The position numbers were made by a program, and so were the translations under genes. A stretch of DNA of 64,000 bases from a virus. The stretch is taken from IMG/VR virus record IMGVR_UViG_3300029827_000001, positions 22,763 through 86,762 of that record. The stretch is one strand, 5' to 3'. Numbering within the stretch: position 1 is the stretch's first letter; each line of letters starts with the position of its first letter. Below, piece by piece: positions 26,078 through 51,036 of this stretch. The notes beneath the pieces were generated by a model that was not told the origin of the DNA, made no database searches, and saw nothing but the letters and a program-made list of their open reading frames with translations.

Positions 26078-26103
26078 AAAAAAAGGGAGGTGGGGAACCT
26101 CCC
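26078..26103 (-). terminator. terminator of the 26-28 kb minus-strand island
   Basis: On the minus strand GGGAGGT-loop-ACCTCCC is followed by TTTTTTTG. It lies 24 bases after the island's last stop codon (26127) and just past the PAAR stop, so it separates the convergent transcripts. Confidence 0.8.
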
Positions 26104-26126
26104 ATAAATCACCCCACCTGGTTGAG

Positions 26127-26498
26127 TTATGAAGATGCAGCCTCTTTTGGCCGCTTCTCTTCGAACATAATGACTTTACTCTCATCCACTTTCGGTCTGG
26201 TCTTAAATTTCCCTTCTCTTATATCTTTCTTATGCTGCTTCCACATCTCAATCTTTTCAACTCCGGTATCTAGAAGATCAGCAAAGAAGACTTGAGAATA
26301 CGAGGATCCACACTGAGGACAAGACAAGTAAGATAGAGAATTATATGCACATCTACAATTCTCACACATCTTGGCGTTTGTCCAATTAGACACTGCTTCG
26401 ATGGGAATTTCTCTCTTCTTGACATTGTCTTCATGGATAAGAGAATAAACAACTACACCTATCAGTACCCCAACTACTAATACAATTAACGTCTGCAT
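26127..26498 (-). CDS. membrane-anchored zinc-ribbon protein
   Basis: A 123-residue protein. The N-terminus is one hydrophobic span (LIVLVVGVLIGVVVYSLI, residues 3-20). It is followed by a zinc ribbon (CENCRC...CPQCGS, residues about 44-63) and an acidic, Lys-rich tail. This architecture suggests a cytoplasmic zinc domain tethered to the membrane. It is the last gene of the island before the terminator. Function unknown. Confidence 0.7.
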   Translation of the reverse strand: MQTLIVLVVGVLIGVVVYSLIHEDNVKKREIPIEAVSNWTNAKMCENCRCAYNSLSYLSCPQCGSSYSQVFFADLLDTGVEKIEMWKQHKKDIREGKFKTRPKVDESKVIMFEEKRPKEAASS

Positions 26499-26514
26499 AT
26501 CTATCAGCCCCTTT

Positions 26515-26676
26515 CTATTTATTTATACATTTTGGACAGAGACCAGTTTTCAAGAATTTCTTTATTTCATCCTCATTTACAAACTGGTCTATTGACACAT
26601 TTGAAAGACACATAGGACAACGTCCTTGCTTGTCTGATTGAGATATACTCCTTTTTTGTTTGTTCTTGTCGTTCAT
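26515..26676 (-). CDS. 53-residue zinc-ribbon protein
   Basis: Read directly from the minus strand: ATG 26676, TAG at 26515. The product starts with a basic stretch (MNDKNKQKRS) and has CPMC and CPKC pairs 27 residues apart. Its start codon overlaps the stop of the preceding gene (ATGA), which supports translation. A small zinc finger of unknown role. Confidence 0.65.
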   Translation of the reverse strand: MNDKNKQKRSISQSDKQGRCPMCLSNVSIDQFVNEDEIKKFLKTGLCPKCINK

Positions 26677-27122
26677 ATTGGATACTCCCCTAAGTGTTCA
26701 AGTACCACTTGAGGATTTCCCTTCTTATTCTTCTTTTTTAGTTCTTTTAGTTCTTCCTCAAGGGGTTCAATCAACCTCTTTCTGACGTGGTTTGTCATCT
26801 CATTGAATTGGTCATAGAGATGAGGAGTTCGAGCGATTATTTCTTCTTGAAAAGCTTCAACCATCTCTAGCTGGTTTTTCATGTGGTTTATTCTTTTAGA
26901 CATCTCGGTAGACCCTTTGATGACTTCAATATTTGACTTTAGTGAGACGTTGGAGCTTTCGAGTACCAGCCTCATCTTTTTATGCATATTGGTCAGTGCA
27001 AGTATTAATATGATTAGTAATGTGAAAGAGACAACATTAAGCACTAGTTGTGTAAGCATAAAACGATGGACTGCTTTTGGTCCTGCTTCTGTAAATTTCT
27101 TATACCGTAACATCGTTAACAT
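26673..27122 (-). CDS. membrane protein with coiled-coil domain
   Basis: A 149-residue protein. Residues about 20-44 form one membrane span (FMLTQLVLNVVSFTLLIILI). A long helical region with heptad character follows to about residue 130, and the tail is Lys-rich. ATG 27122 follows AAGGAG. Its layout resembles an anchored spacer protein. Function unknown; it is part of an island of membrane and exported proteins. Confidence 0.65.
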   Translation of the reverse strand: MLTMLRYKKFTEAGPKAVHRFMLTQLVLNVVSFTLLIILILALTNMHKKMRLVLESSNVSLKSNIEVIKGSTEMSKRINHMKNQLEMVEAFQEEIIARTPHLYDQFNEMTNHVRKRLIEPLEEELKELKKKNKKGNPQVVLEHLGEYPI

Positions 27123-27135
27123 AGGTGCTCTCCTT

Positions 27136-27441
27136 TCACCTAGCTTGCTGTTTTAGTTCTTGAATCTCCTGGTTGCTTAGAGCACGTATTTGTATTACAG
27201 TAGCTGATGGTATTGCCAACCACAGACTTCTATGGAAATAGTCTCCACCTGGATCCTCCAAGTAGCAATAGACAAAGGTCTCTTCCGGAGAGACTTTAAA
27301 ATACTGAGTGTTGATGGATTGTATTGCCACCATAAACTCAGGGTCTCCAGCTCTTCTGTCTTGATTTGGCAACCAGTACTTATAGGTAATATTAAACATA
27401 AGTACCAGCATGATGATAAAACCTAAGAATTTCTTCCCCAT
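27136..27441 (-). CDS. membrane-anchored or exported small protein
   Basis: A 101-residue protein starting at ATG 27441, six bases after AGGAGG. The first ~20 residues (MGKKFLGFIIMLVLMFNITY) are a signal anchor or signal peptide without a clear cleavage site. The rest (residues 25-100) is a small soluble domain with beta strands (FVYCYLEDPGGDYFHRSLW). Function unknown. It likely faces the periplasm. Confidence 0.65.
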   Translation of the reverse strand: MGKKFLGFIIMLVLMFNITYKYWLPNQDRRAGDPEFMVAIQSINTQYFKVSPEETFVYCYLEDPGGDYFHRSLWLAIPSATVIQIRALSNQEIQELKQQAR

Positions 27442-27456
27442 TAGCATCCTCCTTAT

Positions 27457-27615
27457 TTATTCATATTTTGGTAGATTTTCTTTCGCATACTCTTTTGCTC
27501 TCTCAAAAAGGTCGTCAATGGATTCATGCTCCATTATATCGAAGGTTTCCATATGAGTTGCTTTGGTGGTATCAATTATTACTTCAATTCTAAATTGTCT
27601 TACTATTTCTGGCAT
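27457..27615 (-). CDS. 52-residue hypothetical protein
   Basis: Read directly: ATG 27615 with GGAG upstream, TAA at 27457. It begins MPEIVRQFRIEVIIDTTKAT and continues as an acidic helix. No cysteines or membrane span. It fills the gap between two exported-protein genes. Function unknown. Confidence 0.6.
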   Translation of the reverse strand: MPEIVRQFRIEVIIDTTKATHMETFDIMEHESIDDLFERAKEYAKENLPKYE

Positions 27616-27617
27616 CT

Positions 27618-28112
27618 CTATATCTCCTTCCTTCGGAGTAATAGGAAGACAAAGTCAGTAGTTATTCTAACCTCACTTTTGTTATAACGCCAACCTCCTA
27701 TCCCTACTCCATATCCTGAAGCTTCATTGACTGTTTCACTTCCTAGGAAAAGTACCTGATGAGCACCGTCATGACTTGCAAACTTTAGAATCCGATCCAT
27801 TACGTCGTTGATGCTACATTTCTTTGGACCCGACATTCTTATAGTCAAAAATCCAATTGGTTCTAAACCTTCTGGCATTTCTTTGACCAGTTCGCTCTTA
27901 GATGTTGGTTCATACTTTCCGCTTAGATCATGTACCACAATCAGCGCACAGATCTCATCAGGTTTAACTCCAGATTTCTCAAGTCTTTTAAAAACTTCGA
28001 ATACTCCTTCTGGTGTACTTTCAAGAACTTCTGGAGATTTCTGAGTTTCAGCAAAACAAGTTGTCGAAAACAGGACTAAAACTATCAGTATGACTTGCTT
28101 AGAAAAGTTCAT
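27618..28112 (-). CDS. exported protein with Sec signal peptide
   Basis: A 164-residue protein. MNFSKQVILIVLVLFSTTCFAET is a textbook signal peptide with likely cleavage after CFA. The mature domain is alpha/beta with a Gly-rich loop (ASGYGVGIGGWRYNKSEVR) near the C-terminus. ATG 28112 follows AGGAGG. It would act in the periplasm or outside the host. No family recognised. A signal peptide in a phage gene suggests superinfection exclusion or envelope modification, as inference. Confidence 0.7.
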   Translation of the reverse strand: MNFSKQVILIVLVLFSTTCFAETQKSPEVLESTPEGVFEVFKRLEKSGVKPDEICALIVVHDLSGKYEPTSKSELVKEMPEGLEPIGFLTIRMSGPKKCSINDVMDRILKFASHDGAHQVLFLGSETVNEASGYGVGIGGWRYNKSEVRITTDFVFLLLRRKEI

Positions 28113-28135
28113 AATTTCTTTTCCTCCTTAAAGAA

Positions 28136-28411
28136 CTATTTTGATAGGAACTTTCCTTCTCTTGGTAACCTGGTCTGTTCTATAGGGAGGATTGCTATCC
28201 CCACTGCATGACCGTATGTTTTACTATTTACAATCCAGATAACCACACCCGCTTGTTGATCTATAATTCGGGTTACTATAGATTCATCATCTTTCAAATC
28301 GACGTAAAAATCTGAGATGGTTGTTGGGAGTGATGTTGTTGGTTCAGCATAACATAAACCAGTAGAAAGAAGTAAAACTACTATTAATAAAACTAAAACC
28401 TTCGTTTTCAT
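28136..28411 (-). CDS. exported small protein with signal peptide
   Basis: A 91-residue protein from ATG 28411, after GAGGAGG. MKTKVLVLLIVVLLLSTGLCYAEP is a signal peptide with likely cleavage after CYA. The short mature part is about 68 residues of beta-type sequence (GVVIWIVNSKTYGHAVGIAIL). It is the first gene of the island after its TATATATA motif. Function unknown. Confidence 0.7.
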   Translation of the reverse strand: MKTKVLVLLIVVLLLSTGLCYAEPTTSLPTTISDFYVDLKDDESIVTRIIDQQAGVVIWIVNSKTYGHAVGIAILPIEQTRLPREGKFLSK

Positions 28412-28474
28412 AGTACCTCCTCTATCTTTGACATTCAAAATTTTAATATAAACCTATCGACTTGTTATTGGTAA

Positions 28475-28487
28475 TTAATATATATAG
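28475..28487 (-). promoter_or_regulatory. CTATATATATTAA motif of the 26-28 kb island
   Basis: A perfect copy on the minus strand, 64 bases before the first start codon of the island (28411). It is in a divergent junction, so use by the plus-strand glycan operon cannot be excluded. Confidence 0.5.
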
Positions 28488-28493
28488 AGTAAC

Positions 28494-28520
28494 TTATATT
28501 ATCTAAAAGAACAAATTAAT
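28494..28520 (+). promoter_or_regulatory. GAACAAA-type motif before the glycan operon
   Basis: TATATTATCTAAAAGAACAA followed by ATTAATAA, 23 bases before the ATG at 28543. It has the GAACAAA core and a TATA-like block but no long T-run. Confidence 0.45.
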
Positions 28521-28542
28521 AATTAAAAATGAAAGGAATAAT

Positions 28543-31847: not shown

Positions 31848-31859
31848 GGAGTTACAAAA

Positions 31860-33140: not shown

Positions 33141-33145
33141 AAAGC

Positions 33146-35801: not shown

Positions 35802-35804
35802 TAA

Positions 35805-36836
35805 ATGACTAAGGACTTTTGGTTATTTAGAACAAACCTGAGGCCATTAGAGTATTACCATCAGTATAAGAGCTTAGAAAACTTTGAAAAGAATTGTCAT
35901 GACTTTTATCTACTAATGGGAATATGGTTTCTTAGAAACCACATATACGATAACTTTATTGTCTGGCGACTAAACCCGAAAAGACAGAAATTAGCAGATA
36001 TTACTTTTAATATAGATGGTAAGAAATTTATCCAGAGATGGGTAGATAACTTTAATGAAGTATTCGATTACATCCCACCAAAAATTTCCTTCTTTCGAGG
36101 AGGATTCCCTGAGTACTGTAAACTTACAAAAATCAATCCTGACCATTTTGGGAAGAAACTATACCTCGGTGCTGGCAAAAGAGTCTATCCTCAGCATGGT
36201 GGTAACTATGATTTAATACTTTTAGAAAGTGAAAAAGATAATCAAAACGAATATAAAACTGCACCTTTCTATAAAACTGCTAATAATGAGATATTTAAAC
36301 CACTTGGAATGCCAAAAAAATATAACCTATGCTGGATTTGTAATTTTGCTCAAATAAGGCACAAAGGTCAAGAATTTTTTATAAGTGAGATTTCTAAATC
36401 TATTCACTTAAAAGGATTATCTATTGTTCACTTGGGGAATAAACCAGAAGATGGGCAAAGAATGTGTAAGAAATATGGAGTTAATAATATTGACTTTGTT
36501 GGGTGGGTTGAAAGACCAATTCTAAATGAGTATCTAAATTCTAGTTTTTTTGGGGTAGTAACATCAAATGAGCAAGATGGTTGTCCTAGAGTTATAACAG
36601 AAATAATGATGTCTGGAGTACCTCTACTATTAAGAAAAAGAACTAGACTCCTTGACTTCTATAAAAGGTCTGGAGTAATAATATTTGATGATAAAAGTTT
36701 AGAAATGAAGATACAGCACGCGATGCATAAGTATCAAGATTATAATAATCAAGCGAAAAAAAATGTTGAAGAAAAACTAATCATGGATAAAGTCTGTAAT
36801 ATGAACTTAAATCTATGGAACAACTCAAAAAAATGA
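35805..36836 (+). CDS. GT-B glycosyltransferase
   Basis: A 343-residue protein ending the glycan operon. The C-terminal half has CWICNFAQIRHKGQEFFI, FVGWVERPILNEYLNSSFF and the donor motif NEQDGCPRVITEIMMSGVPLLL (E-x7-E-like). The N-terminal domain is Tyr/Phe-rich and diverged. The stop codon is inside the start of a hairpin terminator, marking the end of the transcript. Confidence 0.75.
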   Translation: MTKDFWLFRTNLRPLEYYHQYKSLENFEKNCHDFYLLMGIWFLRNHIYDNFIVWRLNPKRQKLADITFNIDGKKFIQRWVDNFNEVFDYIPPKISFFRGGFPEYCKLTKINPDHFGKKLYLGAGKRVYPQHGGNYDLILLESEKDNQNEYKTAPFYKTANNEIFKPLGMPKKYNLCWICNFAQIRHKGQEFFISEISKSIHLKGLSIVHLGNKPEDGQRMCKKYGVNNIDFVGWVERPILNEYLNSSFFGVVTSNEQDGCPRVITEIMMSGVPLLLRKRTRLLDFYKRSGVIIFDDKSLEMKIQHAMHKYQDYNNQAKKNVEEKLIMDKVCNMNLNLWNNSKK

Positions 36837-36854
36837 GGGGACCCGACTCCCCTC
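36826..36854 (-). terminator. convergent terminator at the end of the 36.9-38.1 kb island
   Basis: GAGGGGA (36835-36841) pairs with TCCCCTC (36848-36854). On the minus strand it is followed by ATTTTTTTG. It ends the minus-strand island and overlaps the stop codon of the glycan operon's last gene. Confidence 0.78.
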
Positions 36855-36880
36855 TAATCACGAGTTCACTTCTGATCTCT

Positions 36881-37912
36881 TTAGAAAACCCAGTGATAAA
36901 CCTTTTTGGCTTTTTCGCTTACCCAGTTATAGGCACCCGAGAAATAGTTACTTTTCTTTTCCTCTTTGGCCTTGACAGTTCCTTCTGCTTCAGCAGCTCT
37001 CTGGATGGCGTCGATGGGCTCATTGTCAATCTTGACCTTGAAACTGTCTCCCTTTATCACTCCATTTAAGTTCTCAGAGTGAATGACAATCTTTTGCTCA
37101 TCGGTCTTCCAGAGGATTGAGGCAAAGCGAACAGATTCCTGGCGGATTGTCAAGTCCCCCTGAACCCAATTTTTGATTGGATCAGGCCATGTTCGCCTAT
37201 CTGGGTTTGACATAAACGCAAAGCATTTCTTGAGACCCATTGATCTCATTTTGTCAATGATAATCTCAAGATCTGTTTCATCCTGACCTTGGAAGTCGGT
37301 CCAGAAGACTCTGCCACCTAATGAGTTATAGGCTCTCCCAACTAGTAAAGAATCGTAACCCCAACTCTTCACCTTATGGGACATATCCTCAATTGCCTTT
37401 GATCTCACTTGATCTTTGTAGACGGTTGTAGGAAATATCATAGTGAAACCATCTGAATCAGTGATAGTTTCAACGCCGATCAACTCGGGGTTTTTGACGT
37501 CTTTGATTCTTTTTGATAAAACGTCAACCAACTGCTTTTCAAGGTGTTGCTGCTCTGCTGCGTAGTTGATTGCTTTCTTGATTGCTTCAGGTCCAGTCTC
37601 ATGGAAAATGTATACTCCTGCTATGGTGAAGATCAAAGCAAGAGAAACTATTGAGTACATAAGGACCCTAATTACATAAGCAAACCCACCTTGAGCTTGT
37701 TCCCTCGGTTTTCTGAACAACCGAAAGCTTTTCGGTTTGTCGACCAACTCTGAAAGTTCCCGACTGACTCTTGATAGATTTTCCTTGATCACTAGTAGTC
37801 TCTCCTTGTCCTCGGTGGTTGCGATTCCCTTATTGACTCTCTCTTCTAATTCTGCGCTTTGACGGAGTAAGGAGACTCGCTCCTCACGAAGTAATTTTTC
37901 TTTCTCCTTCAT
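36881..37912 (-). CDS. membrane-anchored coiled-coil protein
   Basis: A 343-residue protein. The N-terminal ~60 residues are a charged coiled coil (MKEKEKLLREERVSLLRQSA). One membrane span lies at residues about 80-105 (VLMYSIVSLALIFTIAGVYIF). A ~190-residue extracytoplasmic domain with alternating strands and helices follows (IGVETITDSDGFTMIF...). ATG 37912 after AAGGAGG. Base composition is visibly less AT-rich than neighbouring plus-strand genes, compatible with separate acquisition. Function unknown. Confidence 0.65.
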   Translation of the reverse strand: MKEKEKLLREERVSLLRQSAELEERVNKGIATTEDKERLLVIKENLSRVSRELSELVDKPKSFRLFRKPREQAQGGFAYVIRVLMYSIVSLALIFTIAGVYIFHETGPEAIKKAINYAAEQQHLEKQLVDVLSKRIKDVKNPELIGVETITDSDGFTMIFPTTVYKDQVRSKAIEDMSHKVKSWGYDSLLVGRAYNSLGGRVFWTDFQGQDETDLEIIIDKMRSMGLKKCFAFMSNPDRRTWPDPIKNWVQGDLTIRQESVRFASILWKTDEQKIVIHSENLNGVIKGDSFKVKIDNEPIDAIQRAAEAEGTVKAKEEKKSNYFSGAYNWVSEKAKKVYHWVF

Positions 37913-37936
37913 AGTAATATCCTCCTTCTACTTTGG

Positions 37937-38125
37937 TTAGACTATTTCTTCCCCTCCTGTTTCTGGAATTGCAAAACCCTTAATCACTCTCCATCCATAG
38001 GATGGAAAAGCAATTGCTCCAATGATTGTTCCGACAATTGATCCTACACAACCTCCTAGAAATGCTAGAGATAAGAGAATCAGTACACACGCCACCACCG
38101 CCAGAACATCGAGAACTAGTTTCAC
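37937..38125 (-). CDS. 62-residue membrane protein, GTG start
   Basis: GTG 38125 follows GGAGG by seven bases. The product is almost entirely hydrophobic in residues 1-42 (VLAVVACVLILLSLAFLGGC, then VGSIVGTIIGAIAF), giving one or two spans with Gly-rich packing, and ends in an acidic tail. The LGGC could mimic a lipobox, but the following residues are hydrophobic, so I do not call it a lipoprotein. Confidence 0.62.
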   Translation of the reverse strand: MKLVLDVLAVVACVLILLSLAFLGGCVGSIVGTIIGAIAFPSYGWRVIKGFAIPETGGEEIV

Positions 38126-38179
38126 CTTCTATCCTCCTTCCAAATATTAGTTTTAGATACAATAACTTTATTCCAGTAA

Positions 38180-38192
38180 TTAATATATATAG
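38180..38192 (-). promoter_or_regulatory. CTATATATATTAA motif of the 36.9-38.1 kb island
   Basis: A perfect copy, 55 bases upstream of the GTG at 38125 on the minus strand. Confidence 0.5.
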
Positions 38193-38220: not shown

Positions 38221-38260
38221 GAGACATAAATTTTGGATATGAGAACATATTATAAAAATG
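38221..38260 (+). promoter_or_regulatory. GAACA-type motif before the QueC-like gene
   Basis: It reads GACATAAATTTTGG, ATATGAGAACATATTATAAA, then GAAAGGAG. It is a degenerate version of the GAACAAA motif, with ACATA in place of ACAAA. Confidence 0.4.
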
Positions 38261-38896: not shown

Positions 38897-38925
38897 AAAA
38901 AGGCATTGGTGAAATATGCCTTTTT
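38897..38925. terminator. bidirectional terminator between QueC-like gene and the 39-40 kb island
   Basis: AAAAAGGCAT (38897-38906) pairs with ATGCCTTTTT (38916-38925). Both sides have A/T runs, so it can terminate both convergent transcripts. Confidence 0.82.
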
Positions 38926-38952: not shown

Positions 38953-39129
38953 TTATTCACTACCGAACTTTGATTCCATCATAGCTGAGACAAACAGGTT
39001 TAAGCTCTCAGCGATTGCGATCAGAGCAAACTTTATCTTCTCATTGTCCCTATAGTCAGGACCATCAGACTTTGCTCTGTCGATGTACTTTCTTATTTCT
39101 TTTAGTGTGAGCTCTTCTTTAGTGCTCAT
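38953..39129 (-). CDS. 58-residue helical protein
   Basis: Read directly: ATG 39129 with AGGAGG upstream, TAA at 38953. The product (MSTKEELTLKEIRKYIDRAK...) is a compact helical protein without cysteines or membrane spans. It is the last gene before the bidirectional terminator. Function unknown. Confidence 0.65.
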   Translation of the reverse strand: MSTKEELTLKEIRKYIDRAKSDGPDYRDNEKIKFALIAIAESLNLFVSAMMESKFGSE

Positions 39130-39142
39130 TGTTTCCTCCTGG

Positions 39143-39700
39143 TTAGAAGGTTCTCCAACGATTGTTTTTCCACATGAGTTGACGGTCGGCCATGATGGTC
39201 GTATTCTTTTTCTTAGCTACATTTGCAGCCATCAGACCGATTGTATCATGAGTAGTGTTAGTAAAAGTGTGACCCAACTCATGAGCAGTAACTATGCCTG
39301 AACCCTGCATAGTCGACCTAATGAGAATATACCGACCAGCATTCTTTGCCATAAAGGGTTTCCCTGGAAGATTCAGGTAACCAATAGCAACGTCATAATC
39401 AATCTTCTTCTCAAGTTGCTTCGCTCTCTTTGTGAGTTGCATCATTATATGGGCACCTGTTTTCTTGTTCCAGTGATACTCTTTAACTGCTACAATCTCA
39501 AGCTCCATATAGACCTGACCCTTTATGATATTGGTGGCATTTGAAACTGCCTGGTAGATCCGGTCTTGCCTGAACACACCATCTGTCAAAACCAGGACTT
39601 TTAAAGTCCGAACTTCGAAACTCTCAGCAAGTACTGGACTTGCCAAACTGAGAACTAACACTATGATCAATAGTGATCTTAACATCATTCTTCGTTTCAT
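39143..39700 (-). CDS. exported zinc metalloprotease-like protein
   Basis: A 185-residue protein. The N-terminus (MMLRSLLIIVLVLSLASPVLA) is a signal peptide, likely cleaved after VLA near residue 25. HELGH at 140-144 followed by His151 forms a zinc-binding site like zincins, but the third ligand spacing (HExxHx6H) is one longer than the metzincin HExxHxxGxxH. It would act outside the cytoplasm, perhaps on an envelope protein. No propeptide is evident. Protease activity is inferred from the HExxH motif. ATG 39700 follows AGGAGG. Confidence 0.72.
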   Translation of the reverse strand: MKRRMMLRSLLIIVLVLSLASPVLAESFEVRTLKVLVLTDGVFRQDRIYQAVSNATNIIKGQVYMELEIVAVKEYHWNKKTGAHIMMQLTKRAKQLEKKIDYDVAIGYLNLPGKPFMAKNAGRYILIRSTMQGSGIVTAHELGHTFTNTTHDTIGLMAANVAKKKNTTIMADRQLMWKNNRWRTF

Positions 39701-39727
39701 GGTATTATCCTCCTTGAAACTATTAGT

Positions 39728-39988
39728 TTATTTCTCTTTTAGTAACTTCCTTACAAATGGGTAAACTTCATTTATCGTAGTATGGACTCCTGCAACTAGC
39801 GCTGCGACTGCTAGTCCTATTCCAAGTATCACGAATGTCCATGCCAGAAAGTGAGACGAGTGGACGAATGTCCATGAAGTTCTTGAAGCGGTAAACGATA
39901 AACCCCCAATACATAGAGCAACTACTAACTGACCAATTATTCTCTTTACTTGGTCAATATTTCTTTTTTCAAACTCACTAAGTTTCAT
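39728..39988 (-). CDS. small two-span membrane protein
   Basis: An 86-residue protein with two hydrophobic segments: residues about 20-35 (LVVALCIGGLSFTAS) and 48-66 (LAWTFVILGIGLAVAALVAG). Both ends are charged. This layout fits a small holin, antiholin or superinfection protein, but nothing decides among them. ATG 39988 follows GAGGTAG. Confidence 0.6.
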   Translation of the reverse strand: MKLSEFEKRNIDQVKRIIGQLVVALCIGGLSFTASRTSWTFVHSSHFLAWTFVILGIGLAVAALVAGVHTTINEVYPFVRKLLKEK

Positions 39989-40012
39989 TTTAACTACCTC
40001 CTTGTTTGAAAC

Positions 40013-40264
40013 TTACTCTGAAAGACTGGGATGTATTAGTAACTCCCGGCTCTTTTGAGTTATTATATCTCTGTACTTCTTAGAGACTAAGTTTTTGAGA
40101 TCTTCTGATGACTCAACTTTCTTAACCAATGCCGTTGAGAGATTTACCATACCTCTCTCTTTAAATCTAGATATTGCTTTTTCAATCTGACTTTGAGGAA
40201 GACCCTTTTCCTCAAGGTCTTGTCTCACTAACTCTTCAATGAGACACTGTAGGATCTTTTTCAT
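40013..40264 (-). CDS. small charged hypothetical protein
   Basis: An 83-residue helical protein from ATG 40264, after AAGGAGG. Repeated Glu/Lys-rich helices (LIEELVRQDLEEKGLPQSQI) and no membrane segment. It is the first gene of the island after its TATATATA motif. Function unknown. Confidence 0.65.
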   Translation of the reverse strand: MKKILQCLIEELVRQDLEEKGLPQSQIEKAISRFKERGMVNLSTALVKKVESSEDLKNLVSKKYRDIITQKSRELLIHPSLSE

Positions 40265-40322
40265 GATATTACCTCCTTGTAAAGTAGATACCAAGAAACC
40301 AAACATTCCGCCCTATCATTAA

Positions 40323-40335
40323 GTAATATATATAG
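40323..40335 (-). promoter_or_regulatory. TATATATA motif of the 39-40 kb island
   Basis: CTATATATATTAC, one base different from the consensus at its end, lies 59 bases before the ATG at 40264. The plus-strand gene at 40364 begins soon after and has only a short TTTATATATGG match of its own. Confidence 0.45.
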
Positions 40336-40363
40336 TAGCAAATCTTTATATATGGTGGTGAAA

Positions 40364-41831: not shown

Positions 41832-41834
41832 AAT

Positions 41835-42194: not shown

Positions 42195-42196
42195 TA

Positions 42197-42484: not shown

Positions 42485-42501
42485 GACAAAAAAATGAAAG
42501 A

Positions 42502-42540
42502 AAAAGGGAAGGGTCCCTTTTCCTCCTGATGAAGTCAGGA
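42502..42540 (-). terminator. double hairpin ending the 42.5-43.9 kb island
   Basis: Two hairpins follow the stop at 42541 on the minus strand: TCCTGA/TCAGGA (42524-42540), then AAAAGGGA/TCCCTTTT (42502-42521), with a TTTTTTT run at about 42490. The second can also act on the plus strand, so it probably separates convergent transcripts. Confidence 0.7.
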
Positions 42541-42750
42541 CTAAATATCTACGTATGCTACATGACCTCGAAAGTCAGCAAACGCTCTTTCGAAGAGGAA
42601 ATCATGACACTTGTTGCAAATACAACAATGCCGCTTGACGAGTTCAGAAGTTTCCTCATCAAGTTCTCCCCGTAGGTAGCACTCGACATTCTCACGAACA
42701 ACCATACAACCTGGTTGTTGATTTAATTCTCCATCAAGTTTGAAATTCAT
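42541..42750 (-). CDS. small zinc-finger protein of zf-HC2 (anti-sigma) type
   Basis: A 69-residue protein from ATG 42750, after AGGAGG. VECYLRGELDEETSELVKRH followed by CCICNKC gives H41-x3-C45-x2-C48, the zinc site of anti-sigma factors of the zf-HC2 family. These bind sigma factors. A phage version could divert host RNA polymerase; this is inference, because the rest of the anti-sigma protein is absent. Last gene of its island. Confidence 0.62.
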   Translation of the reverse strand: MNFKLDGELNQQPGCMVVRENVECYLRGELDEETSELVKRHCCICNKCHDFLFERAFADFRGHVAYVDI

Positions 42751-42761
42751 ATTTCTTCCTC

Positions 42762-42962
42762 CTACCATCTTCCAAATTGGCCCTTGGTAGACTGGATTTT
42801 ATCCCAGTATCCACCAAATGACAATGATTGCCGAAACTGCTCTTCCTTCCTCTTTCTTTTTCTCTTTGATGAGCGAACGGGTGTACCTTTCCATAACCAA
42901 ATGAAGAAGCAGAGATGAGCAAGAGCAATGACTGCTATTAAGAATTGCCCAAGTGTAAGCAT
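42762..42962 (-). CDS. single-pass small membrane protein
   Basis: A 66-residue protein: one span at residues 5-24 (GQFLIAVIALAHLCFFIWLW) followed by a very basic tail (RSSKRKRKRKEEQF). ATG 42962 follows AGGAGG. The frame in another register here was rejected. Function unknown. Confidence 0.65.
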   Translation of the reverse strand: MLTLGQFLIAVIALAHLCFFIWLWKGTPVRSSKRKRKRKEEQFRQSLSFGGYWDKIQSTKGQFGRW

Positions 42963-42976
42963 GTCTATGCCTCCTT

Positions 42977-43234
42977 TCAGTCCTTATAAAAGGATCTGAT
43001 TCTTTCTTTTCTAAGATGTTCTTCTAATTCTTTCTTTCTCTCATCTTCTCTTTCCCGTTTTTCAGCTTTTACGAAACGGATCCAGAGCTTCGCTATTATA
43101 ATCCATGTAACTGTTGTCAGCAGAAATGATGGCACCCTAGTAAAGATGCTAGTACTCGTTTCCATAGCAGCGATTCCTAGTACCTCTATAACCGCATATA
43201 TGAAACACCACTTCATGAGAGTTGTTGATTGCAT
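42977..43234 (-). CDS. membrane protein with charged C-terminal helix
   Basis: An 85-residue protein. Residues about 10-22 and 32-52 are hydrophobic (WCFIYAVIEVLGIAA and FLLTTVTWIIIAKLW), then a Lys/Glu-rich helix follows (KREREDERKKELEEHLRKER). ATG 43234 follows AGGAGG at slightly long spacing. Function unknown; the layout resembles small holin-like or membrane adaptor proteins. Confidence 0.6.
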   Translation of the reverse strand: MQSTTLMKWCFIYAVIEVLGIAAMETSTSIFTRVPSFLLTTVTWIIIAKLWIRFVKAEKREREDERKKELEEHLRKERIRSFYKD

Positions 43235-43253
43235 AGCCCTATTACCTCCTTGT

Positions 43254-43661
43254 TTAATAGTTGGAATTATCTTCAACTACTACATTGTAGAGTTTAGCAA
43301 GAGCAAGGACCATTTCCTTAAAAGCTACTATTTGTCTATGATCCCAATACTTATGGTTTACGATGACCCTGAAATCTTCCTCATCTTTCATCTCAGTGAA
43401 GATCCAGCAGTCATTCTGCTCGTCATATTCATACTCATTAAGATCCATAAGTATGAAGTGAGGAGCCAGGAAGCTACTTAGTGCTCTTACAGTTGTCGTA
43501 CATATATAGCGTTGATACTCATAATTCTTGAAACGTTTGAATACAAACGTTGCAATTCGACCTCGACGATCCCAGCTTTCATTGATCTTATGAAATATTA
43601 CTTTTTCCAGATCAGCTAGGGATGTTGATGTAGCAATTTTAATTCCTTGTGGAAGGCCCAT
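43254..43661 (-). CDS. hypothetical protein
   Basis: A 135-residue soluble protein with mixed strands and helices. Features: ATFVFKRFKNYEYQRYICTT in the middle, an acidic YEYDEQNDCWIFTEMKDEED stretch, and a C-terminal helix. There is no signal or metal motif. It is co-transcribed with membrane protein genes. Function unknown. Confidence 0.62.
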   Translation of the reverse strand: MGLPQGIKIATSTSLADLEKVIFHKINESWDRRGRIATFVFKRFKNYEYQRYICTTTVRALSSFLAPHFILMDLNEYEYDEQNDCWIFTEMKDEEDFRVIVNHKYWDHRQIVAFKEMVLALAKLYNVVVEDNSNY

Positions 43662-43664
43662 AAT

Positions 43665-43868
43665 CTACCTCCTTGGGTCCAAACTACTACCTACTGCAAT
43701 CATGGTTGAGCAAACATTACACTCAACCCCCTCTTTATGATAAGTAAATCCCCAGTAGAGACATTTCAATCTCTGAGCATCAACTATTGAGTGACAACAT
43801 GGACATTCAACATTATTGATGCTTGATTTAAAAGTTTGAGTAGTTCCGAAAGTATCATGATCACTCAT
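43665..43868 (-). CDS. small zinc-ribbon protein
   Basis: A 67-residue protein with ECPCCHS and CNVC pairs (residues about 21-25 and 49-52) separated by a strand-rich loop. ATG 43868; GGAGG lies 11 bases upstream, and a TTG two codons earlier is possible. It is the first gene of the island. Zinc ribbon of unknown target. Confidence 0.62.
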   Translation of the reverse strand: MSDHDTFGTTQTFKSSINNVECPCCHSIVDAQRLKCLYWGFTYHKEGVECNVCSTMIAVGSSLDPRR

Positions 43869-43916
43869 AACCAACTAAGCCTCCTTGTTCAAGAATATAA
43901 ACAGTTCATCCTACAA

Positions 43917-43929
43917 TTAATATATATAG
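43917..43929 (-). promoter_or_regulatory. CTATATATATTAA motif of the 42.5-43.9 kb island
   Basis: A perfect copy, 49 bases upstream of the ATG at 43868 on the minus strand, in a divergent junction. Confidence 0.5.
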
Positions 43930-43962
43930 ACACTTTTTTTATATAAGGTAACAAAATAAAAA
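43929..43962 (+). promoter_or_regulatory. GAACAAA-type motif (GTAACAAA)
   Basis: GACACTTTTTTTATATAAGG is followed by TAACAAAATAAAA and GGAAAGGAG. It leads directly into the PIG-L deacetylase gene (43982). Confidence 0.5.
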
Positions 43963-43981
43963 AGGAAAGGAGTCTTAAAAA

Positions 43982-45844: not shown

Positions 45845-46346
45845 GACATTTAATAAATGGTTATTTGATGGAAATCTTAAAACCCAAGTTAATTCCGATT
45901 TACTAAAGTATAATTCTCCAATTACTCATACCTATGTTATAAGCATGTTTCAACGTAGTGGTAAGTTGAATCATTTCTTAGATGCATATCTAAACAATAT
46001 TAACTTGTATTATCTTGATAAGGAGGAGTTGTTTAACTTCATCAAGAAGTGTGTAATGGATTTTAGAATCAATAGGAGAGATATAACATTTTCTCCAAGG
46101 ACTTATAACAATGATCTATTCAATTCTCTTCGAGATAAAATTGCTATTCTAAAAGATGATGACCTTGACTTATTGAGTCAAATAATTAATGAGTCAGATG
46201 ATAAAGTAGCAATATTTTCTTCTTTAAATCTTAATAAAAAACAACAGATCAGAAAACCAACTAAGACTTGCCAATTAAACCAAAAAAATAAGATTAGCCT
46301 TGAAGATTTTTTAGAAAACTTTACCACCATAGAGATAGGGAAGTAA
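45834..46346 (+). CDS. hypothetical protein next to DNA polymerase; possible clamp-loader small subunit
   Basis: A 170-residue basic protein. LLKYNSPITHTYVISMFQRSG and YYLDKEELFNFIKKCVM resemble the pattern of phage gp62-type clamp-loader small subunits (conserved SPYVVNR-like start and a helical second half), but the match is loose. The window carries the large subunit at 4.5-5.5 kb and no other candidate. Its 3' end forms a strong hairpin. It overlaps the preceding gene by 11 bases. The gp62 link is my inference. Confidence 0.5.
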   Translation: MPFKTFNKWLFDGNLKTQVNSDLLKYNSPITHTYVISMFQRSGKLNHFLDAYLNNINLYYLDKEELFNFIKKCVMDFRINRRDITFSPRTYNNDLFNSLRDKIAILKDDDLDLLSQIINESDDKVAIFSSLNLNKKQQIRKPTKTCQLNQKNKISLEDFLENFTTIEIGK

Positions 46347-46359
46347 CCTATCTCTATGG
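46327..46359. terminator. 13-bp hairpin at a convergent gene end
   Basis: The arms CCATAGAGATAGG (46327-46339) and CCTATCTCTATGG (46347-46359) flank a GAAGTAA loop holding the stop codon of the gene at 45834. It lies 12 bases after the stop of the 46.4-47.0 kb minus-strand gene. No T-run is present, so its role as terminator is inferred. Confidence 0.6.
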
Positions 46360-46370
46360 CGGGACAGAGA

Positions 46371-46994
46371 CTACGTTTCCGTCAGTTTTTTGGCAATGTC
46401 TTTTGATAAGACTGGAGTTGAAACTGATAGCGGTTTTCGTCCTATTCCTTTGCATTTCTTACACATAACAATTTCTTTTATTTTTCCAGTATTTACTGGT
46501 TTTGATTTACTGCCGCTTCCTCCACAATTTTTACACTTTATTGGTTGACGTCTTTTTGAAGTTCTCCTGTATTCATATATACCTTTTCCTTTACAAGTTT
46601 GACAAGTCTTCTGACCAACATTTCCTTTGCCTTTACACCGCTTACATATACTTCTCGCGATGCCAGTACCGTCACAAACTTTGCATGGAAGAACTAAGAC
46701 ATCATAAAAAAATTCTGGTTTAAAACCTTTGCCCCTGCAATTTGGACAGGCATTAGGTATTGGAAGCTTGATGTAATATCGAGACCTTTCAGATAACTGG
46801 TCTTCGATTATTGCAGCTAGCAAAGTATTCTTTGCTGCTATTACCTTCTCTGTCCCGCTCTTATCTCCCCCTAACTCGGCAAGTAAATCAATAAAAGAAT
46901 TGACTATAGTTTTCTCACTAACATCATCTTGGTTTAGATCCAAAATTCTGATTGAGTCATCAATCATATCCTGATCTATACATGATTTAGTCAT
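46371..46994 (-). CDS. protein with multiple DnaJ-type zinc knuckles
   Basis: A 207-residue protein. The C-terminal two thirds hold CxxCxGxG knuckles: CPNCRGKG, CKVCDGTG, CKRCKGKG, CQTCKGKG, CKNCGGSG and CKKCKGIG. This is more than the four of DnaJ, so it is an expanded cysteine-rich domain without a J domain. The N-terminal ~80 residues are helical. Its likely role is zinc-dependent protein or nucleic-acid binding. It is the only gene of its minus-strand island and is related in motif to the array at 55.6-58.1 kb. Confidence 0.8.
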   Translation of the reverse strand: MTKSCIDQDMIDDSIRILDLNQDDVSEKTIVNSFIDLLAELGGDKSGTEKVIAAKNTLLAAIIEDQLSERSRYYIKLPIPNACPNCRGKGFKPEFFYDVLVLPCKVCDGTGIARSICKRCKGKGNVGQKTCQTCKGKGIYEYRRTSKRRQPIKCKNCGGSGSKSKPVNTGKIKEIVMCKKCKGIGRKPLSVSTPVLSKDIAKKLTET

Positions 46995-47086
46995 AGGCCC
47001 TCCCCCCTTTCAAATCATAATTAGTTTCCTCCTTTTAGAACAATTCTTTGAAAATAAAAAAAACCAATCCATTCATTCTTCAAATA

Positions 47087-47099
47087 TTTATATATATAG
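47087..47099 (-). promoter_or_regulatory. TATATATA motif of the 46.4-47.0 kb island
   Basis: On the minus strand CTATATATATAAA, one base different from the consensus, 93 bases before the ATG at 46994; this is the longest spacing of the seven. Confidence 0.45.
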
Positions 47100-47120
47100 A
47101 AAAAATCTTAATCTGTAATG

Positions 47121-47158
47121 AGTATCCATTTTTTATATCTAGAACAAAAATAAAATTA
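47121..47158 (+). promoter_or_regulatory. GAACAAA-type motif before DNA polymerase
   Basis: GAGTATCCATTTTTTATATC is followed by TAGAACAAAAATAAAAT. It aligns almost base by base with the minus-strand copy at 5.9 kb, which precedes clamp-loader genes, suggesting shared control of replication proteins. Confidence 0.55.
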
Positions 47159-47177
47159 ATATTAATGGAGTACGTTT

Positions 47178-50100
47178 ATGTTTAGTATTAAGAGTTCATT
47201 TGCTGATTGTATGACCTGTCCTCTCCTCAGTGCTCCTTCATGCATACTCGAAACAAACTCTCCCAAAAACCTGAAAGATGTAGAAGTTATATTTCTGTCA
47301 GAAAATCCGGGTAAAAATGAAGTTGAAAAAGAAAAACCTCTGATAGGTAGATCAGGTCAAACATTTAGAAAACCATTTAACTTATATATTAGAGATAAGT
47401 TTAAATGGTTATTGACAAACTGTGTTCTGTGTTGTACGATACTTCCCGACGGAAAGACTGGTAATCCAACTCCGGATATAATCAATAGATGTAAGGAAAA
47501 TGCTTTTAAAATAATCGAAGCATGTAATCCTAAGTTAGTAGTAGCTATGGGTGCATCACCAATGATGGCATTTGGTTTTGCTAAAAGTGGAATAACAGAT
47601 TTGAGAGGACAAGTCTTTAAATGGAACGGTTATGATGTTCTTTTAACAGTTCATCCCTCATTTGTAAATAGAAATCAAACTTATAAAGATAAGTTCGAAA
47701 GAGATATTCAAACTGCAGCAGTAATGCTTGGAGCAAAACTTGAAGTAAAACCAGAGAAAACAATAAAGTCTCTAGGAAAAGGAAAATTTCGTTATAAAAT
47801 TCCAGATAAGTTTTATGAACCAGACTATCGACTTATTGATGTTCAGTTTTTAAATAGAACTAGTGAAGTTTTATATATTTTTAGAGATAAAGATAACAAA
47901 AAAGTTTATCATAAGATGAATGATGATTACTATTGCTACCAAGCTCCAGAAGGAATTGAGAATAGGCATTTAGTTAAATATGAGAATTTAGATTTAATAA
48001 AAGTTCCTTATAGACAAAAAGCAAAGTTAGATCCAGAAAGAACATATGAAGGTGATACGAGAATATCAGTAAAGCATGCTCAAGACTATTATCACTTTAA
48101 TAAAGGAGAACCAGAAACCCGACTCAATATTATGTATTTAGATATTGAGACATATAGCGAGACAAAGGAATTTCCAAATGTTGAAGATGCAAAACATGCT
48201 GTATGTGTTATAACTTATTCTTATCATGGTAAATTTATAACGTATGCAGTTGACAATAAAATTCTTCTAAATAATCCAAATGCTTCAGATATTATAACTA
48301 CAAAGGATGATCCAATCCATATTTTTAAATCTGAATATGATATGCTAATTAAGTTTATAAAAGATTTCAGAACTTTAGAACCAGATTTTGTTGTGGGATG
48401 GAATGTAATAGGATTTGACCTTTATTATATTCATAATAGATGTAAGAGGTTAAGAATAAAGTCTGAATCTATGTCAAAGTTTGGAGAAATATCTTTTTCA
48501 ATTGACGAAAAAAGAACATATTGTGAAATTGCTGGAACTGTTGTTCTTGATCTTCTTAAATTATATAGAAGTTTTACGTTCACACAAAAAGAGAATTATA
48601 GACTTGGTACAATTGCCAAAGAAGAATTAGGAGAAGAGAAAACTGATGTTGGAGAGAATTTCTCTGAGAAATACGAGAAAGATATTAATGGAGCAATTGA
48701 GTATAATATAAAAGACGTTGATTTAATCATAGGTATAGAAAATAAACTAAAACTTATAGTTCTAGAAAATGAGATCAGAAAAATTGGTAGCTCAAGTTTC
48801 TCAGGAGCTTTCAGTAATTTAGGGAAACTAGATAGTCTGGTTATATCATTTCTAAAAGATAAAGGATTAGCATCAAGAAATGCTAATGTCTACAAAGTAA
48901 AAGAACAATCAATTCCGGGAGCTTTTGTCAAAGAACCTCGCATCGGAATTCATGAGCATATAGTTGATTTTGACTTTACATCTCTGTATCCCAGTTTAAT
49001 TTTAACTTATAATATTGGAATAAATACTTTTGCGATGAAATTTAAAGATCATACTTTGGGGTATGACTATGTATATCAACCAGACAATCTTCCCAATGAA
49101 TTTGAAATAATATATGATCCAGCATTTCTGAACAAAGAGATGAAAGTTACAAAGGATCAATTTTTTAAGAAGGTAAAAGAAGGAAATCTTATTTATACAA
49201 TAAATGGTTGTTTCTATAAACCTCATGATAAAGAAGTATCAATTTATTCAGAAGTTCTTGACCATTTGCTAAGTTCAAGAAAAGAGTATAAAACCAAGAT
49301 GTTTGAAGCTAAGCAAGCAGGAAATGAAAATTTACAAGATATGTATCATGGTCGTCAGTTAGTTTACAAAGTTCTTGCAAATGCTCTATATGGTATTCTT
49401 ACAAACCACTTCTTTAGATTCTATCATGATGATCTTGGTAGTAGTATTACTCTAAGTGGTCAGGAAGCATTAAAAACTTCAATTCTTTCAGCAAACAATT
49501 ATGTTAAGAAGCTAAAGGAGTTAACTAAGTATGAAGATCCAGATCCTCTAACGAAGCAAGAAATGTACGGTGACCTATCTAGAGATACTAATTTTATTAT
49601 TACCGGAGATACTGATAGTTTATTTATCACGTTTGGAGAACTAGTAAATAAGAATAAACCAGAAGAAGAAACAATGGGTAAGATTGTAAAGTGGTGTAAT
49701 GAAATTCAAATATTTTTGAATGATAAGATAATTGCTCCATTAGTTAATTTACATAATGTCCCGCCTTCAAAAAATCGTCTCGAGTTGAAGAATGAATTAG
49801 TAATTAAGAGAGGACTATTCTTAGCAAAAAAGAGATACGCAATCTATGTGACTTCTCAAGAAGGAAGAGAGACAAGAGAAATTGTAAACATGGGAATTGA
49901 AACAAAAAGAAGTGATTATCCAAGTTATACAAAAGAAAGTTTAAATGAGCTATTAGATAAGATTTTGAAAGAGGAAGAAGCAAGTCCAGCAAAGATTTTC
50001 AAATTTGTTGACCTTAGAGAAAGAGTCTTTCTACAAAAGATAAAAGCTGGAGATAAATCAGTTGCAAGACCATCCTCATTCACGAAGAAATTAGAGAATT

Positions 50101-50435
50101 ACAAGCGAGTACCTCCTGGTGTGATCTCAATGTTGAATTGGAACGAACTCGAGTATAATATCTTTAATACGGGTTCAAAAGGCTATCTCTTTAAGTTATC
50201 TGGTATTGACCTTATGACAGCACCTGAAGATGTGAGGAAGAGATTTGAGGAGAAATTTCTAGCAAATGGGAGAAAGTTAGAATCCATATCTCTCCCAGAT
50301 GAGGAGGTATCTTTGCCCCCATATTATGTAGTTGACGCTCGGGCAATGCTTAAGTTTGCGTGGACCGATAGATCTGACTTATTATTGAATCCAATAATGA
50401 AGAGGTTAGAAAAACGAACCACTGATACTATTTAG
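47178..50435 (+). CDS. family B DNA polymerase with N-terminal uracil-DNA glycosylase domain
   Basis: A 1085-residue fusion. Residues 1-190 match family 4 uracil-DNA glycosylase: CMTCPLL (C11, C14), SENPGKNE (41-48), KPLIGRSGQ, C86 and C105 flanking the GNPTPDII segment, VAMGASPMMAFG, and catalytic VHPSF; the cysteines would hold a 4Fe-4S cluster. Exonuclease motifs follow: YLDIETYSE (D322, E324), FVVGWNVIGFDL and YNIKDVDL. Polymerase motifs are DFDFTSLYPS, KVLANALYGI and ITGDTDSLF. All catalytic residues I can see are present, so replicative synthesis with proofreading, plus uracil removal in the same chain, is expected. The neighbouring motif suggests co-regulation with the clamp loader. 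Confidence 0.92.
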   Translation: MFSIKSSFADCMTCPLLSAPSCILETNSPKNLKDVEVIFLSENPGKNEVEKEKPLIGRSGQTFRKPFNLYIRDKFKWLLTNCVLCCTILPDGKTGNPTPDIINRCKENAFKIIEACNPKLVVAMGASPMMAFGFAKSGITDLRGQVFKWNGYDVLLTVHPSFVNRNQTYKDKFERDIQTAAVMLGAKLEVKPEKTIKSLGKGKFRYKIPDKFYEPDYRLIDVQFLNRTSEVLYIFRDKDNKKVYHKMNDDYYCYQAPEGIENRHLVKYENLDLIKVPYRQKAKLDPERTYEGDTRISVKHAQDYYHFNKGEPETRLNIMYLDIETYSETKEFPNVEDAKHAVCVITYSYHGKFITYAVDNKILLNNPNASDIITTKDDPIHIFKSEYDMLIKFIKDFRTLEPDFVVGWNVIGFDLYYIHNRCKRLRIKSESMSKFGEISFSIDEKRTYCEIAGTVVLDLLKLYRSFTFTQKENYRLGTIAKEELGEEKTDVGENFSEKYEKDINGAIEYNIKDVDLIIGIENKLKLIVLENEIRKIGSSSFSGAFSNLGKLDSLVISFLKDKGLASRNANVYKVKEQSIPGAFVKEPRIGIHEHIVDFDFTSLYPSLILTYNIGINTFAMKFKDHTLGYDYVYQPDNLPNEFEIIYDPAFLNKEMKVTKDQFFKKVKEGNLIYTINGCFYKPHDKEVSIYSEVLDHLLSSRKEYKTKMFEAKQAGNENLQDMYHGRQLVYKVLANALYGILTNHFFRFYHDDLGSSITLSGQEALKTSILSANNYVKKLKELTKYEDPDPLTKQEMYGDLSRDTNFIITGDTDSLFITFGELVNKNKPEEETMGKIVKWCNEIQIFLNDKIIAPLVNLHNVPPSKNRLELKNELVIKRGLFLAKKRYAIYVTSQEGRETREIVNMGIETKRSDYPSYTKESLNELLDKILKEEEASPAKIFKFVDLRERVFLQKIKAGDKSVARPSSFTKKLENYKRVPPGVISMLNWNELEYNIFNTGSKGYLFKLSGIDLMTAPEDVRKRFEEKFLANGRKLESISLPDEEVSLPPYYVVDARAMLKFAWTDRSDLLLNPIMKRLEKRTTDTI

Positions 50436-50472
50436 AAAAAAATGTGGGACACCGGCATCAAAGTGTCCCACA
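50434..50472 (-). terminator. terminator of the 50.5-51.0 kb island
   Basis: TGTGGGACAC (50443-50452) pairs with GTGTCCCACA (50463-50472); on the minus strand TTTTTTTCTAAA follows. It ends the island and lies just past the polymerase stop. Confidence 0.82.
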
Positions 50473-50473
50473 A

Positions 50474-50512
50474 TACTGAGTAGGGGGAAGGCATCTAGTG
50501 CCTGACTCAGTA
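50474..50512. repeat. nested hairpin at the end of the 50.5-51.0 kb island
   Basis: Outer arms TACTGAGT (50474-50481) and ACTCAGTA (50505-50512) enclose an inner AGGCA/TGCCT stem with a TCTAG loop. It precedes the terminator on the minus strand. It could be an RNA-stability or protein-binding structure. Confidence 0.55.
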
Positions 50513-50761
50513 CTATTTTGGTTCTATAAACTGGGGGAGAAATATTACTACAACTATTGCTCCTACCAGATAACCGCCAATGCCTATAAAAGTTCTAATA
50601 AATGTTCTCTGTGTAAAACCTTCTTTTTTATCAGTTGCAGCGATACCAATTGCTATTGCTGAGGCAAACAGAGAAAATAGAGCAAAAGGTGAAGATTTGC
50701 ATGATAGTAAAGTAATCATGCCAATAAAACCTATCAAAAAACAACTAAGGTTTCTTTTCAT
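50513..50761 (-). CDS. small multi-span membrane protein
   Basis: An 82-residue protein with about three hydrophobic segments (FLIGFIGMITLLS, LFSLFASAIAIGIAA, GIGGYLVGAIVVVIFLP). LLSC near residue 21 could be read as a lipobox but the flanking sequence is a membrane span. ATG 50761 follows AGGAG. Function unknown; lies downstream of another small membrane protein. Confidence 0.62.
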   Translation of the reverse strand: MKRNLSCFLIGFIGMITLLSCKSSPFALFSLFASAIAIGIAATDKKEGFTQRTFIRTFIGIGGYLVGAIVVVIFLPQFIEPK

Positions 50762-50770
50762 CTCTTTCTC

Positions 50771-50983
50771 CTATATCATCGCATAGGCAATGAGGTAACC
50801 TCCTAGAAAACATATGAACTCTGTACCTCTTGTCTTTACTCCAAGAAAGATGCCTATTATGAGGAGGATTATTAGTACTGGAGTATGAGAAATTCCATAC
50901 TTTCTCGCTTCATTAGCTAGTAGAAATATTAATGCTCCAAAAACGAAAGATGCTAAATTTCTTATAATTGATCTAGTATTCAT
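50771..50983 (-). CDS. small membrane protein
   Basis: A 70-residue protein with three hydrophobic segments (LASFVFGALIFLLA, VLIILLIIGIFLGV, FICFLGGYLIAYAMI). ATG 50983 follows AGGAGG. First gene of its island, 41 bases from the TATATATA motif. Function unknown; possible envelope-targeting or holin-like protein. Confidence 0.62.
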   Translation of the reverse strand: MNTRSIIRNLASFVFGALIFLLANEARKYGISHTPVLIILLIIGIFLGVKTRGTEFICFLGGYLIAYAMI

Positions 50984-51023
50984 TATCCCCTCCTAAAAAA
51001 AGTTAGAAATTCTCTATTTGAAA

Positions 51024-51036
51024 TTAATATATATAG
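51024..51036 (-). promoter_or_regulatory. CTATATATATTAA motif of the 50.5-51.0 kb island
   Basis: A perfect copy, 41 bases before the ATG at 50983 on the minus strand. Confidence 0.5.

What the first reader, a model, noticed from the sequence alone, without database searches (positions are those of the whole stretch)
26078..51036. Minus-strand islands look like self-contained cassettes set between plus-strand operons
Five islands (26.1-28.4, 36.9-38.1, 39.0-40.3, 42.5-43.9, 50.5-51.0 kb), and a sixth single-gene one (46.4-47.0 kb), each run against the flanking plus genes. Each begins on the right with a TATATATA motif, and each ends on the left with a hairpin terminator, often with a T7-type run. 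Most products are small membrane, exported or zinc-ribbon proteins. To my eye their DNA is less AT-rich than that of adjacent plus genes. This looks like an accessory module system for envelope or host-takeover genes inserted in a common format.
Basis: partly seen in the sequence, partly recalled or inferred. Interest (0 to 1): 0.75.

Follow-up and report, generated by a model that had tools for sequence, protein, structure and literature searches.

The report
Early-gene operons of a jumbo phage
The backward-running gene islands are most likely the phage's early genes: each has the same phage-specific promoter and its own terminator, back to back with a different promoter for the late genes, in a large, uncultured phage group whose better-assembled relatives carry two RNA polymerases of their own.

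Summary
Six minus-strand islands lie between plus-strand operons. Each starts at CTATATATATTAATT (1-2 mismatches at two islands), and most end at a hairpin plus T7. Their third codon positions are less AT-rich, and 14 of 21 products carry a hydrophobic segment against 2 of 50 plus genes.

In the nearest relative (277 kb) every island sits at the same junction, and 17 of 21 genes have orthologues in order, so within this genus they are fixed. In distant relatives islands are kept, emptied, lost or placed elsewhere, in the same format.

The motif is directional and part of a promoter pair. Element A reads into the islands and fits the AR9 jumbo-phage early consensus. Element B (AGAACAAAnnnnAAA) reads the opposite way, into capsid, terminase and polymerase operons, and resembles the AR9 late consensus. 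The pair hit 80 stretches of IMG/VR (listing cap) against 2 for a control. Of 16 large contigs with it, 11 encode RNA polymerase beta-prime; six carry two types that form two fully supported clades.

Best reading: early transcription units read by a virion-type RNA polymerase. Timing is inferred, and the polymerase genes lie outside the window's own record.

The parts
26127..28438 (-). Island 1: seven small genes (single-helix zinc-ribbon protein, membrane and signal-peptide proteins)
   Evidence: six of seven have syntenic orthologues in G004 174797-177222
36881..38125 (-). Island 2: 343-aa single-pass protein and 62-aa membrane protein
   Evidence: orthologues in G004 185223-186521
38953..40306 (-). 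Island 3: exported HELGH...H protease-like protein (39143-39700) plus three small genes without a G004 orthologue
   Evidence: protease 77% identical at the same site in G004, where the other genes are replaced by a prepilin-like gene
42541..43874 (-). Island 4: five small genes (zinc-binding and membrane proteins)
   Evidence: all five have orthologues in G004 190520-191877
46371..46994 (-). Island 6: single gene, protein with DnaJ-type CxxCxGxG zinc repeats
   Evidence: Pfam PF00684 2.8e-10; same junction before polB in G004, L036, L062, L094
50513..50983 (-). Island 5: two small membrane proteins between polB and queE
   Evidence: conserved in G004; the 70-aa gene also in G003
28473..28487 (-). 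Promoter element A (CTATATATATTAATT) of island 1
38178..38192 (-). Promoter element A of island 2
40321..40335 (-). Promoter element A of island 3 (1 mismatch)
43915..43929 (-). Promoter element A of island 4
47085..47099 (-). Promoter element A of island 6 (2 mismatches; the same variant is kept in G004 at 195349)
51022..51036 (-). Promoter element A of island 5
13956..13970 (-). Promoter element A of the minus-strand left arm (replication and nucleotide genes)
   Evidence: arm genes UvsX, ribonucleotide reductase, clamp loader, Dda helicase from G004 orthologues
28508..28522 (+). Promoter element B (AGAACAAATTAATAA), divergent to island 1
38242..38256 (+). Promoter element B (AGAACATATTATAAA), divergent to island 2
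43948..43962 (+). Weak element B variant (GTAACAAAATAAAAA), divergent to island 4
   Evidence: sequence; below the matrix threshold
47141..47155 (+). Promoter element B (AGAACAAAAATAAAA), before polB
51071..51085 (+). Promoter element B (AGAACAAAATAAAAA), before queE
59666..59680 (+). Promoter element B before the 298-aa gene upstream of the portal gene
   Evidence: portal PF07230 at 61751-63676
26085..26103 (-). Hairpin + T7 terminator of island 1
36835..36854 (-). Hairpin + T7 terminator of island 2
38898..38925 (-). Hairpin + T5 terminator-like site of island 3
   Evidence: read by eye; not listed by the scan
42496..42526 (-). Hairpin + T7 terminator of island 4
46327..46359 (.). Stem-loop without T run between the convergent 45834 gene and island 6
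   Evidence: read by eye
50443..50472 (-). Hairpin + T7 terminator of island 5

Best explanation
The islands are early transcription units of an uncultured large phage that very likely encodes two RNA polymerases. Each unit has a phage-specific early promoter, A (5'-CTATATATATTAATT-N2-T-R-A, start predicted at the R), a few small, fast-evolving genes, many of them envelope-directed, and usually an intrinsic terminator. At most island junctions A lies back to back with a late promoter, B (5'-AGAACAAAnnnnAAA), which drives the plus-strand late operon. A would be read at once by a virion-packaged polymerase and B later by a polymerase made in the cell, as in AR9 and phiKZ. Shown: the two directional motifs, their positions, conservation of the islands, two RNA polymerase pairs in G004, and the motif pair recurring in relatives that carry one or two polymerases. 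Inferred: that the window phage also has the polymerases, the timing, which polymerase reads which motif, and what the island proteins do.
For: Direction: A precedes minus genes even where both neighbours are minus (G000 9296; G004 112982, 125135, 135726) and fires the other way at G004 59491, where the late terminase is on the minus strand. In 70 pairs from IMG/VR, positions outside the searched motif show T18 83%, R19 100%, A20 86%, only on the island side. Statistics: A 8 sites against 0.2 expected; B 14 against 1.2, 30 against 1.4 and 16 against 0.6 in three records. Gene classes: B precedes terminase in G004 and several other phages, the major capsid operon, the large plus-strand proteins, and virion structural proteins; A precedes small unknown genes and the replication arm. 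Literature: AR9 early consensus AAATATATATTAT-(6N)-G, late AACA-(6N)-T(A/G), and early and late genes divergent on opposite strands (PMC5312081). Polymerases: G004 encodes two unsplit beta/beta-prime pairs, both beta-primes with NADFDGD; 11 of 16 pair-bearing contigs encode beta-prime, six of them two types, in two clades with 100/100 support. No sigma-70 promoter excess.
Against: No expression data exist. The window's own 86.8-kb record does not contain the polymerase genes; by synteny with G004 they lie outside it. polB and a DnaB-type helicase are on the plus (B) side, unusual for purely late genes. The junction of island 3 has no clear B. Which polymerase belongs to which promoter could not be settled: in G004 one pair lies downstream of A and B and the other of B only, but other phages give no consistent pattern. 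Element B differs from AR9's late consensus at -1 (A instead of T).
Confidence: 0.8

Rival explanations
1. The islands are morons or accessory cassettes inserted between operons, each carrying its own promoter and terminator.
For: Autonomous units with different codon usage; content turnover in island 3 and gene gains in G004; across distant relatives islands differ between junctions.
Against: All six junctions and 17/21 genes shared with G004; the zinc-repeat island is kept before polB in phages at 52-56% PolB identity; the promoter also drives core operons; GC3 is raised in the G004 A-only units too, so it is not a mark of recent import.
Confidence: 0.1
2. Element A is a T4-type late promoter (TATAAATA-like, read by host polymerase with a gp55-like sigma factor), so the islands are late.
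For: The phage group has T4-type head genes (Gp23 capsid, T4 portal and terminase), and T4 late promoters are an AT-rich octamer (own knowledge).
Against: Capsid, terminase and large structural genes follow B, not A. No Sigma70_r2 match in 8 records, though gp55 may be too divergent to show. A fits the AR9 early consensus over ten bases.
Confidence: 0.07
3. A and B are not promoters but other directional signals, such as replication origins or RNA-processing sites.
For: No transcript was mapped here; the early/late reading rests on position and analogy.
Against: Strict placement upstream of co-oriented genes, a conserved YR start dinucleotide, and match to experimentally mapped AR9 promoters.
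Confidence: 0.03

Closest known systems
Early and late promoters of Bacillus phage AR9 (phiKZ-related, two multisubunit RNA polymerases)
   Same: AT-rich early element (ATATATATTA core) with a purine start 5-6 nt downstream; late AACA-(6N)-start element; early and late genes on opposite strands from divergent promoter pairs; terminators at operon ends.
   Different: A has a leading C and TTAATT tail; B has A instead of T at -1 and an extended AG/AAA context. In AR9 and phiKZ the polymerase subunits are split into several chains; here they are unsplit.
mReC phages (multimeric RNA-polymerase-encoding Caudovirales, Weinheimer and Aylward 2020)
   Same: Unsplit beta and beta-prime on one phage contig, capsid family PF07068, terminase family PF03237, found in metagenomes.
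   Different: The text of that paper that I searched and read has no 'promoter' or 'sigma' and does not report two polymerase pairs per phage; I could not test whether these polymerases fall in its clade.
Yersinia phage YerA41 and Cobetia phage Carin-5
   Same: Phages encoding RNA polymerase beta and beta-prime; early genes of YerA41 are scattered over several scaffolds.
   Different: About 150 kb, one polymerase set seen in the region read, about 25-28% identity, YerA41 beta-prime split in two.
Phage morons
   Same: Small autonomous units, often of deviating composition, between operons.
   Different: These are fixed within the genus and share one phage-wide promoter with core operons.

Membership tests
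phiKZ/AR9-type two-polymerase transcription programme | Two multisubunit RNA polymerases per phage | tested here: met
   Two beta/beta-prime pairs in G004 and two beta-prime types in six records. Not in the window's own record, which is a fragment.
phiKZ/AR9-type two-polymerase transcription programme | AT-rich conserved motif before presumed early operons, start about 6 nt downstream | tested here: met
   Element A and its initiator
phiKZ/AR9-type two-polymerase transcription programme | Distinct late promoter before structural genes | tested here: met
   Element B before terminase, capsid operon and structural genes
phiKZ/AR9-type two-polymerase transcription programme | Islands expressed early, one polymerase in the virion | not testable with these tools
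   needs RNA and virion protein data
phiKZ-related phages as a taxon | Split beta and beta-prime subunits | tested here: not met
   All four subunits in G004 are unsplit, with NADFDGD in both beta-primes; so not filed as phiKZ-related
mReC lineage | Unsplit beta and beta-prime on a tailed-phage contig | tested here: met
mReC lineage | Capsid PF07068 and terminase PF03237 | tested here: met
mReC lineage | Polymerase falls in the mReC clade | not tested
Moron | Variable presence between close relatives | tested here: not met
   all six islands shared with G004
Moron | Own promoter and terminator | tested here: met

The most novel reading that the evidence does not exclude
A widespread, uncultured group of phages with T4-type heads carries two ancient, unsplit, cell-like RNA polymerases and uses an early/late promoter pair almost the same as that of AR9. 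The two-polymerase programme would then predate the splitting of subunits in phiKZ relatives, or have arisen twice, and the early regulon of this genus would be largely an envelope-directed set of exported and membrane proteins.
Probability: 0.45. Interest if true: 0.8.

Novelty: new variant of a known kind. Interest (0 to 1): 0.6.

Why it matters
It gives a readable early/late map for phages that cannot be cultured: any gene behind A can be called a candidate early (takeover) gene from sequence alone. It ties an unsplit phage polymerase lineage to AR9-like promoters, which makes the disputed origin of jumbo-phage RNA polymerases testable in vitro. It also points to a set of early exported proteins, including a protease-like and a prepilin-like protein, as candidates for envelope takeover or superinfection exclusion.

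Tried and rejected
Sigma-70 promoters: no excess (68 against 64.6 and 21 against 34.4 expected). Rfam on window and three loci: no match. The ~140-nt A transcript of L036 looked like a structured RNA but folds no better than shuffles (z -0.69). Structure of the protease-like protein: mean pLDDT 45, not used. Sigma factor search: none. Linking each polymerase type to A or B by upstream sites: inconclusive. Hydrophobic-segment and GC3 bias as a general mark of A-side genes in all relatives: not significant across the 70 pairs (p 0.08 and 0.13), so it is claimed only for this genus. Near-identity search of cultured phages: none. Moraphages as the known name of this group: they lack RNA polymerase genes (PMC12619734).

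Full report
What the window is. The window is positions 22763-86762 of an 86,762-base IMG/VR record. It has no near match among 50,697 phage records. Its B-family polymerase is at most about 29% identical to those of T4-like phages. The nearest relative found, G004 (277,131 bases; identical over 23 kb to two further records), is syntenic with nearly the whole record from G004 125.8 to 212 kb. G003 (113 kb) shares the right part.

The observation. All six islands are real. The right-end motif is a directional 15-mer, AATTAATATATATAG on the plus strand and CTATATATATTAATT as read into the islands: exact at four islands, 1 mismatch at island 3, 2 at island 6, exact again before the minus-strand left arm. 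Every copy in the record has the same orientation, and the reversed pattern gives none. With a matrix there are 8 sites against 0.2 expected, all within 150 nt upstream of a co-oriented gene. Four islands end at a hairpin with T7, one at a hairpin with T5, one at a stem without Ts. Island genes have GC3 35.8% against 23.7% in plus genes, with no difference at positions 1 and 2; 14 of 21 have a hydrophobic segment against 2 of 50.

Not insertions within the genus. Every island has its counterpart at the same junction in G004. Of 21 island genes 17 have a syntenic orthologue; the missing ones are 27618, 38953, 39728 and 40013. Island proteins evolve faster (median 56% against 73% identity, p=8.5e-5). 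In G004, genes behind A alone again have raised GC3 (36.1% against 26-27.5%) and more hydrophobic segments (23/39 against 46/310). The compositional difference is therefore inherited, not a mark of recent import.

Two promoters. Upstream regions of three genomes show a second directional word, GAACAAA (53 regions sense, 9 antisense). It lies about 20-65 nt before plus operons at most island junctions and elsewhere before structural genes. The pair A-N15-45-B hit 80 stretches of IMG/VR, the listing cap, while the same pattern with B reversed hit 2. In 70 distinct pairs the B-side gene is co-oriented in 63 of 64 cases and the A-side gene in 49 of 61. Outside the searched letters, A continues with T18, a purine at 19 in all 70, and A20; B continues with A at 10 and AAA at 12-14. 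B-side genes include terminase in several phages, a virion structural protein, polB, queE and queC.

Fit to known promoters. In AR9 the early consensus is AAATATATATTAT-(6N)-G and the late one AACA-(6N)-T(A/G); early and late genes start divergently on opposite strands (PMC5312081). A shares ten consecutive bases (ATATATATTA) with the early consensus and has its purine 5-6 nt downstream. B shares AACA and the six-base spacing. A review states that every polymerase-encoding jumbo phage has such an early motif before its presumed early operons (PMC7598289).

Polymerases. G004 encodes two beta/beta-prime pairs (81080-87010 and 113878-121314). All four subunits are unsplit and both beta-primes have NADFDGD. 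Of 16 large records carrying the promoter pair, 11 encode beta-prime, six of them two types. The roughly 900-aa and 1000-aa types form two clades with 100/100 support, so the duplication is older than the group. The capsid is Gp23 type (PF07068) and the terminase PF03237, both features of the mReC lineage (PMC7481178). Because the polymerase genes lie outside the window's record, their presence in the window phage is inferred from synteny.

Turnover at larger distance. In L036, L062 and L094 (PolB 52-56% identical) the zinc-repeat island is kept before polB. Between polB and queE, L094 has no island and L036 has an A promoter with only about 140 nt to the convergent gene. L062 has an island before the 42197 homologue, and L092 one between two separate halves of gene 40735. 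Before terminase, several phages have A followed by a ribosome-binding site, an ORF of 20-40 codons and a terminator-like hairpin. G004 has an island on the opposite strand beside its minus-strand terminase. So the units behave as cassettes on a long time scale while keeping one format.

Function. Timing is inferred: B is late because structural genes follow it, and A is the other class with an AR9-early-like sequence. The island proteins of this genus are mostly exported, membrane or zinc-binding; the best-conserved is an exported protein with HELGHTF...HD, a metzincin-like signature with one extra residue. I read them as early envelope-directed takeover or exclusion proteins, but nothing here tests that.

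Noticed in passing
L010 2514-2921 (G004 187956-188363): In G004 island 3 holds a prepilin-like protein with an N-terminal methylation motif (PF07963 3.8e-6, above cut-off), where the window has three unrelated small genes.
   Followed up: partly
window 39143-39700: Exported protein with HELGHTFTNTTHD, 77% identical in G004; weak Reprolysin_5 hit (0.037). No other relatives found in IMG/VR.
   Followed up: partly
L076, L084, L096, L097, L103, L111, L115: Upstream of terminase, element A drives a very short unit, mostly with a ribosome-binding site and an ORF of 20-40 codons ending at a terminator-like hairpin.
   Followed up: partly
G004 59.49-60.1 kb (L016): Island in the opposite orientation, beside the minus-strand terminase gene.
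   Followed up: partly
L092 (reverse strand) 2380-2751 and 4289-4720: The two halves of window gene 40735-41562 are separate genes here with an island between them.
   Followed up: no
window 47178-50435: The B-family polymerase has an N-terminal extension that looks like a uracil-DNA glycosylase domain (by eye).
   Followed up: no
window 38275-38874 and 51101-51772: QueC (PF06508 1.1e-26) and a radical-SAM QueE-like protein: a possible 7-deazaguanine DNA modification set.
   Followed up: no
L034 6473-6808 and 10248-10715: A cupin gene lies between beta and beta-prime of one polymerase pair, and a response-regulator-like gene just upstream.
   Followed up: no
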